Shown here: positions 21,034 to 26,849 of the stretch, piece after piece | How positions within the stretch are numbered: position 1 is the stretch's first letter | Layout: every line of letters starts with the position of its first letter | Virus record (IMG/VR): IMGVR_UViG_3300048839_000221 | Location: 1 to 36,394 of that record | Reading direction: 5' to 3' (one strand) | From: a virus | DNA length: 36,394 nt | Position numbers and translations under genes: made by a program | The notes under the pieces: model-generated | What the model saw: the letters and a program-made list of their open reading frames with translations, nothing else | Told to the model about the DNA's origin: nothing | Databases searched by the model: none

Positions 21034-21360
21034 ATGGGACTGCTCAGGGATGCACTCAACGCGCTGGTAGCGCCGTCGCTGGAACCACTGTCCGGTCGAG
21101 TTGCGAAGCTGGAAGTTGCGATGGCAACGCTTCAGGTACCAGCCGACCTGACCGAGCGCCTGGCAGGGCTGGAAGCGCGCCCGACTTACGATCCGGGCAT
21201 CAACGTGGCGATCGACGATGCGCTGGCAGCATTGGATGCGCGCACTGCGGAGCTCGAACCAGCATTGACTGCCGAGCAGCGTTCCGATATTGGCCAGGTG
21301 CGCAGCATGGTTGTCGATCTTCAGGAATTCCTTGCTGCGATCAAGGCCACGCCGCAATGA
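21034..21360 (+). CDS. Coiled-coil protein of the fibre locus (108 aa)
   Basis: MGLLRDALNALVAPSLEPLS leads into heptad-like helices (GRVAKLEVAMATLQV; IDDALAALDARTAELEPAL). AGGAGG at 21023-21028 precedes the ATG. The stop overlaps the next start as ATGA, tying it to the 1003-aa protein. A trimerisation or chaperone role for the fibres is possible but unproven. Confidence 0.7.
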   Translation: MGLLRDALNALVAPSLEPLSGRVAKLEVAMATLQVPADLTERLAGLEARPTYDPGINVAIDDALAALDARTAELEPALTAEQRSDIGQVRSMVVDLQEFLAAIKATPQ

Positions 21361-24300
21361 GCGCACTGACGTTCAGCGTCGAATCCTGGGTCTCGCTGCT
21401 TGCGCAGACGACTGCGCAGGCACGCGCAACGGCGATGGCCGGCTGGTTCTCGGGCGGCGCGACGATTGAATTCCGAGACGCTGCCGACACGCTGATCCGC
21501 AGCGTGACGACTGGCGCGTGGACGGTGGGCGCGGCGCAAGGCGGAGCGTATCCGGTCGTGCCAGGCACGTACACGGACGCTGCCAGCGGTTCCGGGACGC
21601 CTGTGGTGGCCGTGTTCAAGTCCGGCGCTACCGAGCGCTTCAGGTGCTCCTGCGGGACCGGCGCCGGGAGCTTCTACCGGCTCTTGGCGAACATCGCGGC
21701 CAACGTGCCTATCAAGCGTGGCGGGTTCAGCGTCGTCATGCCGCCACCGCCCGCAGTCGGCACGAGTGAGCCGGTGAATACCAGGCTGCCGGCGATCAGC
21801 GGTACGGCCGCAGTCGGCGCGGTGCTGACGTGCGTGGCCGGCGAGTGGACTGGCAACCCGGTGCCGAGCGTCACGCGGCAGTGGTATCGGGCATCGACCG
21901 CAATCCAGGGCGCGACCGGCCTTGCGTACTCGCTGGTGCTGGCGGACGCTGGCGCGCTCATTACCTGCCGCGAGACCGCGACGAACACGGTTGGCTCGCG
22001 CACGGCGAGCAGCAACAGCCTGGGACCGGTGTCGGCAGGCCCGCTGACCTTCGCAGCGCCTGCGCAGATCGACATCTATCAGGGTGGCACGTACTCGCTC
22101 GCACAGCACGTCTCTGGCGGGCTGCCGCCTTACTCAGGCTATGCGCTGGACTCCGGCACGCTACCGTCCGGCGTGACACTCAATGCCTCGACCGGCGTGC
22201 TCAGTGCCGCCGGCGACGCAACGGTGGCTCTCAGCGGCAACCTGACCTTCGGCGTCGATGATGCGCAGGCTCCGGTCGTGCCTGGTGTACTGCCGGTGTT
22301 CTCGCTGATGAGCGCGGCGGGCGGCGCCGACCTGCCGTTCACTTTCGGGCATGTGTTCAAACAAGGAGACGTGCCGGCCGGGACGTTCGTCAACAGCAAC
22401 CTGACCGACTGGCAAGCGGTGCCGACGACGTACTGGCCGGACGGCTCGGTGCGTCACGCGATCATCAGCGGTCGGGCGACCTGCACTGCAAACGTGCTCA
22501 AGGCGATCCAGCTATCTGGCGCTGCGACCGATCGTGCCGGGACCGCCTTGACCGAGGCGAACCTCGCAACAAATCTGCCGGCAACGACGCTGACATGCGG
22601 AGTCGGCGGCGAGGTTATCTCGCTCAATGCGCTTGTCGGTACGGCGGCGAAGCATCGGACAGTATGCGCCGGGCCGGTCATGAGCAACTGGCTGTACCGC
22701 AAGCAACTGGCTGGCAGCAATCACCTGGTCGCCTGGTTCGACGTACGCCTCTACAAGGGTGGCACGGTCGAAATTTTCCCGTGGGTCGAGAATTGCTATC
22801 TGACGGTCGCGAGTCCGATCAACGATGTCAGGACATGGACCGTCGCAATCGGCGGTTCGACGCGCTTCTCGCAAAGCATCGACATCAAGGCCGGAACTCG
22901 TGTTCCGCTGCTGACCGGCACGAACTTCAGCCATTGGGCCGCTACCGATCCGCAAATCACGCCGAAGCACGATACGGCGTACATGCGCGGCACGAAGATG
23001 GTCCCGAATTTCTCGATTGCGCCGTCCGAAGCGCTGCTCGCCGGCATGCAACAGGGCTACACACCGAACACGCTGGCAGGGATGTCGGCAGGCATGGGCG
23101 CGGCGGGTGGCAACAGCGCGGTACTTGGTTGGTCGGGCTTGATTGCGCAGCCCGCGTACGTATCAGCAAACGCTGATGCGCGAGCCTACCGTGCGTGCCT
23201 CACGTTCGGGCTGTCCGGTGGTTCGTGGCCCGTGCATTACAGGGCGGAAGCGGCGAGTGCCCAAGGTGCGGCCGGAGCGCCAAACGAGCCGATGCGCTTT
23301 GCCGACTATCCGAATGCGAGCCTGCAATCAGGCGCGAGCCCGACAATTATTGGTGGCGAGATTCCATTCCCAGGGGCCGGCCCAAACTCGCCCGTGGTGA
23401 CGCACCAGCCGAGTTTCGGCTACCTGCCGTGGCTGATTACCGGTCGGTGGTGGTTCCTCGAGGAACAGGTGTTCTGGACTGCGTACAACTATCTGAAGGC
23501 CAATCCATCGCAACGCACTGGCGCTGTGTATGGGCAGGACACCGGGGCGTATCCCGCCTACGCGGCAAACGGGAGCGCCGGCATCGTCATGCTGGAGGCT
23601 GGCAGCTACACCGTGCGCGGCTCTGCGTGGACCCTGCGCTGCTTGATGCAGACGTTAGCGATCCTGCCGGATACGCATTCGTCGTACGCGTCGGTCAAGG
23701 CGTCGTGGGAAGCCAACGTCGGCTACTACCATGATCGATTCATCACTGGTGCCTATCAGACTGAGCCGGGTGATTCCGCGTATGCAGACAGCATCATTGG
23801 GTACGTCGGCAAGTACGGGACCAACGATGGAACGCCGTCGATCTATGCGGTGCCAGGCTTTCAGTCCGTAATGGTATGCGCGGCCTGGGGCCATGCGCCT
23901 GAACTCGACTTGCCCCAAACCACATCGGCAAAGCTCGCGCTCGTGTCGAAGCATGTGCTCAAGTGGGTGGTCGGGCTGACCGGCCCATCGGACGGTTGGG
24001 ACTACCGATTCGGAACTGCACAGTATCACTCGGCGATCGGCACTGTTGGCGGTGATGGGCGGCCGGTGCTGTCCGCGTCGTTCGCGGATGCTTTCGCACT
24101 ACAGGTCACGTTCAAATCGCTCAATACGGCCGTTGCTGGCACCGAGCTTCGATACAACAACGATGAACTTTCCGTGGCAGGTACGAGTGGCTGGCCGTAC
24201 TTCGGTCTGCATGTCGGGGCACTCGCGTCAGCGGTCGATGCAGGGGTCACCGGCGCGTCCGCAGCCTGGGCGCGCATGACTGCTGCGAGCAACTACGGCG

Positions 24301-24368
24301 CGATGAACGCGAGGTTCGCTGACAGCGAGAAGCTGCACGTTTATGCCGTGACACCGAGGACGCTTTGA
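21357..24368 (+). CDS. Large Ig-containing tail fibre/tailspike protein (1003 aa)
   Basis: The N-terminal ~130 residues look like a virion-attachment domain. Residues about 138-220 form an Ig-like repeat (SGTAAVGAVLTCVAGEWTGN and QWYRASTAIQGATGLAYSLV). A putative-Ig (He_PIG-like) repeat follows at about 228-300 (SGGLPPYSGYALDSGTLPSG). From about 320 the protein continues with LPFTFGHVFKQGDVPAG and VPTTYWPDGSVRHAI, which by eye resembles the N-terminal barrel of PcRGLX/YetA-like sugar lyases. The rest is long and globular with many aromatic residues. A polysaccharide-degrading or binding tailspike is plausible but rests on weak likeness. The TGA stop lies within the TTGA that ends the adjoining TnpB element, so the native C-terminus may be altered. 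Confidence 0.75.
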   Translation: MSALTFSVESWVSLLAQTTAQARATAMAGWFSGGATIEFRDAADTLIRSVTTGAWTVGAAQGGAYPVVPGTYTDAASGSGTPVVAVFKSGATERFRCSCGTGAGSFYRLLANIAANVPIKRGGFSVVMPPPPAVGTSEPVNTRLPAISGTAAVGAVLTCVAGEWTGNPVPSVTRQWYRASTAIQGATGLAYSLVLADAGALITCRETATNTVGSRTASSNSLGPVSAGPLTFAAPAQIDIYQGGTYSLAQHVSGGLPPYSGYALDSGTLPSGVTLNASTGVLSAAGDATVALSGNLTFGVDDAQAPVVPGVLPVFSLMSAAGGADLPFTFGHVFKQGDVPAGTFVNSNLTDWQAVPTTYWPDGSVRHAIISGRATCTANVLKAIQLSGAATDRAGTALTEANLATNLPATTLTCGVGGEVISLNALVGTAAKHRTVCAGPVMSNWLYRKQLAGSNHLVAWFDVRLYKGGTVEIFPWVENCYLTVASPINDVRTWTVAIGGSTRFSQSIDIKAGTRVPLLTGTNFSHWAATDPQITPKHDTAYMRGTKMVPNFSIAPSEALLAGMQQGYTPNTLAGMSAGMGAAGGNSAVLGWSGLIAQPAYVSANADARAYRACLTFGLSGGSWPVHYRAEAASAQGAAGAPNEPMRFADYPNASLQSGASPTIIGGEIPFPGAGPNSPVVTHQPSFGYLPWLITGRWWFLEEQVFWTAYNYLKANPSQRTGAVYGQDTGAYPAYAANGSAGIVMLEAGSYTVRGSAWTLRCLMQTLAILPDTHSSYASVKASWEANVGYYHDRFITGAYQTEPGDSAYADSIIGYVGKYGTNDGTPSIYAVPGFQSVMVCAAWGHAPELDLPQTTSAKLALVSKHVLKWVVGLTGPSDGWDYRFGTAQYHSAIGTVGGDGRPVLSASFADAFALQVTFKSLNTAVAGTELRYNNDELSVAGTSGWPYFGLHVGALASAVDAGVTGASAAWARMTAASNYGAMNARFADSEKLHVYAVTPRTL

Positions 24369-24520
24369 CTGCTCCCCACCCTGAAGGACGGGGATTCCCA
24401 CTTCACAGAACCGAGCCGTTCCGCACTTACATGCAGACAGGACTTACCGATTCTCCATGGGCTGACACCGCCAGTCCGGCGGCCAAAACGTTGCGCGCTG
24501 CGTTTACGTCGCGGTCGTGG
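24365..24520 (-). ncRNA. Putative omega-RNA (reRNA) scaffold of TnpB
   Basis: In the IS200/IS605 family, TnpB uses an RNA that overlaps the tnpB 3' end and runs through the right end into flanking DNA, which becomes the guide. Here this would cover the last ~90 bp of tnpB, the hairpin and TCAA. The guide would come from the minus strand at about 24364-24345, antisense to the end of the 1003-aa fibre gene. The 5' limit is a guess. Confidence 0.4.
24374..24393 (-). repeat. TnpB element right-end imperfect hairpin
   Basis: CCCCACCC-TGAA-GGACGGGG forms an imperfect stem with two central mismatches. It lies six bases inside the terminal TTGA and probably belongs to the right-end structure and to the 3' scaffold of the guide RNA. 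Confidence 0.65.
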
Positions 24521-25560
24521 ATCGCTCCGCACTCGGGGCAAGTCCACTCGCGCACGTTCAGCGGCATCGTGGCGACGGTGTGCCCGCAGTCACTGCATCG
24601 CTTGCTGGACGGGTACCAGCGGTCGATGCCAACGAGCGTGCGCCCGTACCAGTGCGCCTTGTATTCCAACTGCCGAACGAACTCCGACCAGCTTGCATCA
24701 CTGATCGACTTCGCAAGGCAGCGGTTCTTCTGCATGTTCGACACGGACAGGCTCTCGACGGCGATCACTTGGTTCTCGTTTATCAGCCGGGTGGAGAGCT
24801 TGTGCAGGAAGTCCCTGCGGGAGTCCGCGATCTTCGCGTGCAGTCGAGCCACCTTGAGCTTGGCTTTCGCGCGGCGAGCCGAGCCCCGGGTTTTCTTCGC
24901 CAGACGGCGTTGCAGCTTCGCCAGTTTGGCCTCGTTCTTTCGGAACGTGTTCGGCGCGGCGATCTTCTCGCCGGTCGAGAGGATTGCGAAGTGCGTCAGA
25001 CCGAGATCGACGCCGACCCGACCTTTGGCCTTGCGCTTGGCCGATACGGTGTCGTTGCACAGCATCGATACGAAGTACCGGCCCGCTGTGTCGCACGAGA
25101 CGGTCACGGTCGTCGGCTTCGCGCCCCTCGGCAACGTGCGCGACCAGCGAATTGCCAGCGGCACATCCATCTTTGCGAGCTTCAGCGCCTTGCCGTCCCA
25201 CTTGAAGGCGCTGGTCGTGTACTCGGCGGATTGCGGGCCGTCCTTGCGCTTGAAGGATGGATACCGCGCCCGCTTGGCGAAGAAGTTGGCGAACGCCGTC
25301 TGCAAGTGCCGCAGTGCCTGCTGCACCGGGACGCTGCTTACTTCGTTAAGCCACGCGAATTCTGGTTCGCGCTTCAACTTCGTCAACGCAGCGGAGGTCT
25401 CGTGATAGCCGACCCGTTCCTGTCGCTGAAACCACGCATCGGTACGCAGCCGAAGCATGTGGTTGTAGGCAAAGCGCGCACAGCCAAACGTGCGAGCAAG
25501 GATCAATTCCTGCCCGGGCGTCGGATAGAACCGAAAGCGGTAGGCACGCTTGATGTCCAC
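24427..25560 (-). CDS. tnpB: TnpB RNA-guided nuclease
   Basis: This 377-aa protein has the normal TnpB length. The N-terminal part (RAYRFRFYPTPGQELILART) matches the family's opening, including the FGCARFAYNHML helix. The split RuvC nuclease is complete: D185 in GVDLG, E269 in AVESL, D351 in DRDVNAARN. The zinc ribbon has C322/C325 (CSDCGH) and C341/C344 (CPECG). All catalytic and zinc residues are present, so it is likely active. The start is GTG 25560. A TATACT about 10-15 bases upstream (25570-25575, minus) could be a -10 box but would leave almost no leader. It is transcribed against the surrounding tail genes. Confidence 0.93.
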   Translation of the reverse strand: MDIKRAYRFRFYPTPGQELILARTFGCARFAYNHMLRLRTDAWFQRQERVGYHETSAALTKLKREPEFAWLNEVSSVPVQQALRHLQTAFANFFAKRARYPSFKRKDGPQSAEYTTSAFKWDGKALKLAKMDVPLAIRWSRTLPRGAKPTTVTVSCDTAGRYFVSMLCNDTVSAKRKAKGRVGVDLGLTHFAILSTGEKIAAPNTFRKNEAKLAKLQRRLAKKTRGSARRAKAKLKVARLHAKIADSRRDFLHKLSTRLINENQVIAVESLSVSNMQKNRCLAKSISDASWSEFVRQLEYKAHWYGRTLVGIDRWYPSSKRCSDCGHTVATMPLNVREWTCPECGAIHDRDVNAARNVLAAGLAVSAHGESVSPVCM

Positions 25561-25640
25561 GGCTCACAGTATACGTCGAATCGGTGTGAGCTACTGTATT
25601 TCCAGACAGGAATGCGGCCTATCGGCTGCGCTCCTTTCCT

Positions 25641-25660
25641 CCCCCGCCTGAAGGCGGGGG
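25641..25660 (-). repeat. TnpB element left-end hairpin
   Basis: CCCCCGCC-TGAA-GGCGGGGG is a perfect 8-bp stem with a TGAA loop and the same apex as the right-end hairpin. In this family such subterminal hairpins are bound by the Y1 transposase. The 25561-25640 stretch between it and tnpB has no ORF I can support. Confidence 0.7.
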
Positions 25661-25676
25661 TTTCTCGGAGCCTCCG

Positions 25677-26849
25677 ATGACACGGGCTACCGCCACATTC
25701 AAGATCAACGTCACGGCAGCGCCGCCGGCCGGCGCGGTGCCGGCGCTCGGCGCGGCAAAGCTGATTGGAGCGTCGGACGGGCACCAGTCCGTCATGCCGG
25801 CAGGAATGAACGCTGTCGCGTTCACGGAGGCGCTGTTCGAGGCATACGGTTGCGGCGCGTTCGTGCGCGATTACTCGACCGATGGTGCCTTCATCGTCGC
25901 CAACTCTGGCGGGCACAACCACTACGAGATCGTGGGCGGCGCAGGATTCGACTTCACGACTCGCTCATGGTTCTGGCGCGGGACTCCGGGTTACACGGAG
26001 AAGATGCCAGCCAGCGCGGTCGCTGACACGAACGGCTCTCCGTACTATGAACTGACCGCTGCCGCTGCGCAGACTCCTGCTCCTCCGCACCCGTACGGGA
26101 ACATGCACTCCATCCGCGCCGCCGACGGAGGTGGGGCGAAGGGTTCGATCATCCACATCGGCCGAGCTGCGGTCTGCCAGGAGTCGGTTAGCTCCTCGAC
26201 GGCGCACAAGTTCGATTGCAGCACCGGCGTTTGGTCGCGTGCGGCGACCGGAACATTCACGCACACCGGACTTCAAGAGGGCTTCGCAGTATTCGACCCG
26301 GTCACAAAGAGGTACTACAGCGTCGGATCAACGAGTCAGCACGCTGCATCGTTCGTTTCTTACCTGAACGTGGCCGACTGGACGTGGAAAACCCTCTCCG
26401 GGATCGGCTATGCGACACCTGGAGATTCGACATATGCCAGCGCGCTGTCCTGGGCTGGTAATGGCAAGCGACTGCTGATGCTGCTGTGGGGATCGACGTG
26501 GCAGGCGCTCGATCTCGACTATCCGGCTGCTGGATGGCAGACGATCTCACACACTGGCGTAGCCATCTCGCCTGCCAAGAACGCTCCTTGCTGGCACGAG
26601 GGGAACGGCAATCTGTACTGGCGTGCGGGCACGGGCGCGGGGCGGACGCTTGTGAAGGTCGTTCCGCCCGCGAACCCGCTCGCCGGAACGTGGGTGAAGT
26701 CAACGGTCACGTTGAGCGGGGACACGATCCCGGAGTTCAAGGGCAGCAGCGTCACGACCGAGCACTACAAGAGCCTGTTCTACATCCCTTCGCTCGGAAT
26801 GCTCGGTTGGGTGACGGCGTTCGGCGTAGCTCTACTCAACCCGAACTGA
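25677..26849 (+). CDS. Beta-propeller-like tail-locus protein (390 aa)
   Basis: The protein starts with a short Thr/Ala-rich segment (MTRATATFKINVTAAPPAGA). It continues as repeated blocks with aromatic-rich strands: GHNHYEIVGGAGFDFTTRSW, CSTGVWSRAATGTFTHTG, VADWTWKTLSGIGYATPG, GWQTISHTG. The repeating 'W + glycine' pattern resembles Kelch/galactose-oxidase-type propellers. It probably sits on the tail as a binding module. GGAG at 25667-25670 lies 6 nt before the ATG and just outside the TnpB element, so translation signals survive. The element would separate it from its upstream operon partner. Confidence 0.7.
   Translation: MTRATATFKINVTAAPPAGAVPALGAAKLIGASDGHQSVMPAGMNAVAFTEALFEAYGCGAFVRDYSTDGAFIVANSGGHNHYEIVGGAGFDFTTRSWFWRGTPGYTEKMPASAVADTNGSPYYELTAAAAQTPAPPHPYGNMHSIRAADGGGAKGSIIHIGRAAVCQESVSSSTAHKFDCSTGVWSRAATGTFTHTGLQEGFAVFDPVTKRYYSVGSTSQHAASFVSYLNVADWTWKTLSGIGYATPGDSTYASALSWAGNGKRLLMLLWGSTWQALDLDYPAAGWQTISHTGVAISPAKNAPCWHEGNGNLYWRAGTGAGRTLVKVVPPANPLAGTWVKSTVTLSGDTIPEFKGSSVTTEHYKSLFYIPSLGMLGWVTAFGVALLNPN

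What the first reader, a model, noticed from the sequence alone, without database searches (positions are those of the whole stretch)
24365..25662. Catalytically intact TnpB element lodged antisense in the tail-fibre locus
TnpB keeps D185, E269, D351 and four zinc cysteines, lacks TnpA, and has both end hairpins. From known TnpB biology, the guide would be the flank beyond the right end, i.e. the 3' end of the 1003-aa fibre gene. It would therefore cut phage copies lacking the element, acting as a homing or competitor-excluding device in a fast-evolving locus.
Basis: partly seen in the sequence, partly recalled or inferred. Interest (0 to 1): 0.75.

Follow-up and report, generated by a model that had tools for sequence, protein, structure and literature searches.

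The report
TnpB element silently splitting gene junction
A small, intact RNA-guided DNA-cutting transposon (TnpB) sits in this phage exactly where one gene's stop codon overlaps the next gene's start codon, and its two ends rebuild both codons, so it does not alter either neighbouring protein; related TnpB elements in many phages and bacteria use the same kind of site.

Summary
Its 377-aa TnpB keeps D185/E269/D351 and C322/C325/C341/C344, is under purifying selection, and has end hairpins; the right-end hairpin covaries. No TnpA is present. The new part is the insertion rule. The motif beside the left end is TCAT, the complement of ATGA: the start codon of the downstream gene, which overlapped the stop codon of the 1003-aa gene (CTA TGA / ATG ACA). 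The right end finishes in TCAA and supplies a new in-frame stop (CTT TGA; last residue still Leu). The left end supplies GGAG 6 nt before the ATG. Two sister phages have the uninterrupted ATGA overlap. In 26 independent viral insertions of this TnpB group, 11 are strict two-sided start/stop junctions, against 29 of 1183 other ATGA sites (p=7e-11). Real empty sites in Burkholderia, Klebsiella phages and mycobacteriophages confirm the boundary rule. Homing among near-identical phages is plausible; exclusion of diverged competitors is not supported.

The parts
24365..25676 (-). TnpB-only IS200/IS605-type element (1312 bp), exact ends
   Evidence: Right end GTCAA| shared by relatives; left end set by TCAT| in relatives and by real empty sites
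24427..25560 (-). tnpB, 377 aa, RuvC D185/E269/D351, zinc C322/C325/C341/C344
24373..24394 (-). Right-end hairpin, 3' part of the expected guide-RNA scaffold
   Evidence: Covariation at 5 pairs in 21 sequences; coordinates
24365..24368 (+). Right-end terminus TCAA (TTGA on +); TGA at 24366-24368 is the in-frame stop of the 1003-aa gene
24345..24364 (-). Predicted guide, AGCGTCCTCGGTGTCACGGC
   Evidence: Position follows TnpB architecture; rule verified at empty sites of relatives; unique in the window
24356..24359 (+). GAGG, likely original ribosome-binding site of the downstream gene, now 1.3 kb away
   Evidence: Sequence, 5 nt before ATG in the joined empty site
25641..25660 (-). Left-end hairpin
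25667..25670 (+). GGAG in the left end, 6 nt before the downstream ATG; replacement ribosome-binding site (inferred)
   Evidence: such a motif is present in 11 of 26 viral sites, so not universal
25677..25680 (+). ATGA = complement of the TCAT target motif; start codon of the 390-aa gene
25562..25591 (-). Inverted repeat GCTCACA-N16-TGTGAGC over the putative -10 (TATACT) of tnpB
21357..24368 (+). Upstream gene, 1003 aa; last codon CTT (CTA in empty site), both Leu
25677..26849 (+). Downstream gene, 390 aa, start codon intact

Best explanation
It is a non-autonomous TnpB-only IS200/IS605 element with a functional-looking RNA-guided nuclease. It entered the phage by insertion 3' of a TCAT motif (enzyme supplied in trans; inferred). 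Here TCAT is the complement of the ATGA at which the stop of the 1003-aa gene overlaps the start of the 390-aa gene. Because the element ends in TCAA and TCAT is kept, insertion turns ...CTATGA... into ...CTT TGA [element] ATGA...: both reading frames survive and the first protein is unchanged. The left end also brings a GGAG at ribosome-binding distance. These steps are read directly from sequence and from empty-site relatives. The nuclease is expected to process its own 3' RNA into a guide for the last 20 nt of the upstream gene and to cut TCAT-flanked empty copies, so that the element is copied back or the empty copy is lost (inferred from studied TnpBs). This would keep the element in its own phage lineage and close siblings, not exclude diverged phages.
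For: Family, catalytic residues and selection. Ends. Natural empty ATGA overlap at the orthologous junction: sister G232, whose upstream homologue (50% id) ends in the ATGA that starts the next gene, and sister G231, GACGCT|ATGACGCG, downstream homologue 68% id. Same rule elsewhere: Gifsy-1 GipA between gpZ and gpU and Klebsiella RSU-F4K5, Klebsiella ZCKp20p and Pseudomonas phita81A; 31 Klebsiella-type phage records cover the joined junction in one place, and annotated BUCT610 has the 4-bp overlap. Burkholderia empty sites show no target loss or duplication. Statistics: 11/26 strict two-sided junctions against 29/1183 control ATGA sites, odds ratio 29, p 7e-11; 18/27 ATG frames and 15/27 upstream stop frames as expected, p 1e-8 and 5e-6. 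Guide conserved in empty sites of relatives. Gene-drive behaviour of TnpB is published for plasmids (PMC11870625).
Against: No expression or cleavage data. No identical empty site of this phage was found, and the upstream gene of sister G231 has about 265 extra C-terminal residues, so the locus is recombined. The junction enrichment may be survivorship (insertions elsewhere kill the phage) rather than targeting. The ribosome-binding motif is found in only 11/26 relatives and is part of an end hairpin. 6 of 26 viral sites show neither start nor stop correspondence. Left ends were placed at the TCAT motif by eye for most relatives.
Confidence: 0.85

Rival explanations
1. Survivorship only: the element inserts at any TCAT, and only insertions at start/stop overlaps or intergenic points persist in compact phage genomes. 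No preference is built into the element. (This competes with the targeting reading, not with the anatomy.)
For: TCAT alone explains start-codon contact; 6 of 26 viral sites show neither correspondence, and the TTTAT-type subgroup shows little of the pattern (1 of 7). Bacterial sites are start-codon linked but rarely overlaps.
Against: Independent elements recur at the same start codons in Burkholderia and Paraburkholderia, which a random process would seldom give, though tolerance could.
Confidence: 0.55
2. Competitor-excluding nuclease: TnpB protects the host or lysogen from related phages by cutting their empty junction.
For: Catalytic residues intact, gene under purifying selection; guide lies in a phage gene.
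Against: Sister phages match 11/20 and 9/20 guide bases; no true empty target in viral contigs.
Confidence: 0.15
3. Inert passenger: tnpB is a relic or is not expressed, since no TnpA is present.
For: No TnpA in the window or sister records; some relatives are decayed (L019, L086).
Against: Intact ORF, all catalytic residues, dN/dS 0.05-0.2, conserved promoter repeat and covarying right-end hairpin.
Confidence: 0.15
4. Domesticated RNA-guided repressor (TldR-like) controlling the fibre genes.
For: Phage-borne context recalls published phage-encoded TldR cases (PMC13418256).
Against: TldR proteins have lost the RuvC residues; here all three are present.
Confidence: 0.03

Closest known systems
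ISDra2 TnpB (Deinococcus radiodurans; 8bf8, 8h1j)
   Same: Full-length homology, same catalytic and zinc residues, same order of target motif, left end, tnpB, right end, guide (and own knowledge)
   Different: Motif is TCAT-type here, not TTGAT (own knowledge); no TnpA; sits in a phage gene junction
TnpB-only IS200/IS605 elements of virulent Campylobacter phages (ISCaje; PMC2853527)
   Same: TnpB-only members of the family inside phage genomes
   Different: Other hosts; junction structure not described in the passages read
Gifsy-1 GipA and Klebsiella phage ZCKp20p TnpB
   Same: 57-59% identical TnpB, TCAT left motif, GTCAA right end, ATGA start/stop junction between structural genes
   Different: Different genes and hosts; annotated without the insertion rule
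TnpB plasmid gene drive (PMC11870625)
   Same: Proposed action on empty copies of the insertion site
   Different: Shown for plasmids, not for a phage
IStrons (PMC4227781)
   Same: IS605-type elements that avoid harming the host gene
   Different: IStrons splice out of RNA; here the ends rebuild stop and start codons in DNA

Membership tests
TnpB RNA-guided nuclease | OrfB_IS605 and Cas12f1-like TNB domains over full length | tested here: met
TnpB RNA-guided nuclease | RuvC D, E, D and four zinc cysteines | tested here: met
TnpB RNA-guided nuclease | Conserved structured right end overlapping the tnpB 3' end | tested here: met
   Alignment and fold of 21 right ends, 5 pairs with both-side changes; the single-sequence DNA fold of the right end alone was not significant
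TnpB RNA-guided nuclease | Guide RNA made and DNA cut next to the motif | not testable with these tools
   Needs RNA sequencing and a cleavage assay
IS200/IS605 family element (IS1341-like, TnpB only) | Subterminal hairpins, no target duplication, motif kept at left end | tested here: met
   Hairpins; empty-site comparison in relatives and sister phages
IS200/IS605 family element (IS1341-like, TnpB only) | Absence of TnpA | tested here: met
   (record may be an incomplete phage contig)
Nuclease-dead TldR | Loss of RuvC active-site residues | tested here: not met

The most novel reading that the evidence does not exclude
A widespread group of TnpB elements with a TCAT motif and TCAA right end is matched to the ATGA start/stop overlap: insertion there restores both codons (and often a ribosome-binding site), making the elements near-neutral in dense phage operons and allowing them to spread between essential structural genes.
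Probability: 0.45. Interest if true: 0.65.

Novelty: new variant of a known kind. Interest (0 to 1): 0.5.

Why it matters
Transposons in virulent phages must not break genes, and how TnpB elements persist there is not explained. A rule by which the motif and the element end together rebuild start and stop codons would explain why tnpB is antisense and lies between structural genes, lets insertion sites and motifs be predicted from sequence, and can be tested by simple cloning. It also limits what such a nuclease can target: only phages sharing the same gene end.

Tried and rejected
Direct search for relatives of the 1003-aa and 390-aa proteins in viral contigs and phage records gave no close hit; the route through the terminase found sister phages instead. 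Pattern searches for the exact empty site gave 8 and 3 unrelated matches with no homologous flanks; G221, identical in terminase, is too short to cover the locus. A first control for start/stop overlap with loose ORF limits was weak (13-19% background) and was replaced by a best-frame test. The idea that every left end carries a ribosome-binding site was rejected: 11 of 26 only. The idea that shared sites in Burkholderia prove homing was rejected: elements are more diverged than flanks. TldR-type repression was rejected because the active site is intact. No published account of the junction rule was found in 9 held-library searches, which miss most subscription journals.

Full report
What is there. 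The window is a 36,394-bp virus record. On the minus strand, 24427-25560 encodes a 377-aa TnpB with full-length matches to the TnpB domains and to the solved ISDra2 TnpB. D185, E269, D351 and C322, C325, C341, C344 are present and invariant in intact relatives. dN/dS against nine relatives is 0.05-0.21. The closest relatives (72-86% identity) are in Burkholderiales and other Proteobacteria and in viral contigs. No TnpA was found in the window or sister records.

Ends. The right end is GGGAGCAGTCAA| at 24365, and the left end is |CGGAGGCTCCGAGAAACC... next to TCAT, so the element spans 24365-25676. The 95-nt right ends of 21 elements fold into a common hairpin with both-side changes at five pairs; the left end folds better than shuffles (z -2.6), the right end alone does not. 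Real empty sites fix the rule: in Burkholderia...CCCGGCCG|ATGAAAGC is uninterrupted in sister species and interrupted exactly at | in L063.

The junction. TCAT read on the plus strand is ATGA, the first bases of the 390-aa gene. Joining 24364 to 25677 gives ACG CTA TGA for the upstream gene and ATG ACA for the downstream gene: a 4-bp start/stop overlap preceded by GAGG. With the element present, the upstream gene reads ACG CTT TGA, the stop coming from the element's own TCAA end; CTA and CTT are both Leu, so neither protein changes. The left end places GGAG 6 nt before the ATG. Two sister phages reached through the terminase show the natural state: G232 has ...GGTCAGC|ATGACGCGC with the upstream homologue ending there, and G231 has ...GTGACGCT|ATGACGCGC with a downstream homologue 68% identical. 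In G231 the upstream protein has about 265 further residues, so the locus also recombines.

Generality. Among relatives, left ends abut (T)TCAT and this is often the start codon of the neighbour gene: a tape-measure-like gene in L007, an endolysin-like gene in L019, transporter-like genes in L057, L060, L063, L066 (these gene names are my own reading of the sequences). Gifsy-1 GipA lies at the gpZ/gpU ATGA junction, and Klebsiella phages ZCKp20p and RSU-F4K5 and Pseudomonas phage phita81A show the same. For the Klebsiella site 31 records cover the joined junction in one place and the annotation of BUCT610 has the 4-bp overlap. In mycobacteriophage Scottish the motif is TTAC-like and the tape-measure stop TAA is replaced by the element's TGA, while 329 records have the joined junction in one place. 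Counting 26 independent viral TCAT-type sites with a best-reading-frame test, 11 are strict two-sided junctions, against 29 of 1183 other ATGA sites in the same flanks (p 7e-11). Using 27 callable sites, the ATG frame is best in 18 and the upstream stop frame in 15. Sites with TTAT-type motifs rarely show it (1 of 7).

Mechanism. Shown: intact nuclease gene, exact ends, codon-silent junction, guide position. Inferred from studied TnpBs: guide RNA processing, cutting of TCAT-flanked empty copies, restoration by recombination; gene drive by TnpB is published for plasmids (PMC11870625). Insertion must have used a TnpA from elsewhere (inference). The element's end beside the guide is GTCAA and the target is GTCAT, so self and target differ by one base, a testable point. 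The guide occurs once in the window.

Homing or exclusion. In Burkholderia, 8 of 20 sister loci keep motif and all 20 guide bases; a Klebsiella relative keeps 19 of 20. For this phage, sister empty junctions match 11 and 9 of 20 and no homologous empty site was found in viral contigs. So any drive acts on near-identical phages. At two shared bacterial sites, elements are 75-84% identical while the flanking gene is 91-96% identical, which suggests repeated independent insertion at the same start codon.

Known or new. TnpB in phages is known (392 of 50,697 phage records have a relative; PMC2853527; PMC9901506). The codon-restoring junction rule was not found in the papers searched, a limited library. 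Whether it is targeting or survivorship is open.

Noticed in passing
window 25562-25591 (minus) and the 45 bases upstream of tnpB in relatives: Inverted repeat TYACA-N15/16-TGTRA over the -10 of tnpB, exact in 23 of 59 loci from Proteobacteria, Firmicutes, Actinobacteria and others (0.07% in shuffles), with some paired changes (p 0.03). As hosts differ, the likeliest binder is TnpB itself; a possible self-repression operator.
   Followed up: partly
L361-L365: Different TnpB elements (75-84% identical) occupy the same start codon in different Burkholderia and Paraburkholderia species whose flanking genes are 91-96% identical.
   Followed up: partly
L012, L014, L015, L282, L284, L298, L303, L307, L308, L345: A subgroup uses a TTAT-type motif (ATAA on the other strand) instead of TCAT, with the same GTCAA right end.
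   Followed up: partly
L274 (sister phage G231): Upstream homologue carries about 265 extra C-terminal residues compared with the window's 1003-aa protein, and in G233 the region is rearranged: variable module.
   Followed up: no
L358, L359, L360: Unrelated viral sequences share TCAT plus the first 13 guide bases; the guide covers a GAGG ribosome-binding-like site next to ATGA, so guides at start codons may have more off-targets.
   Followed up: no
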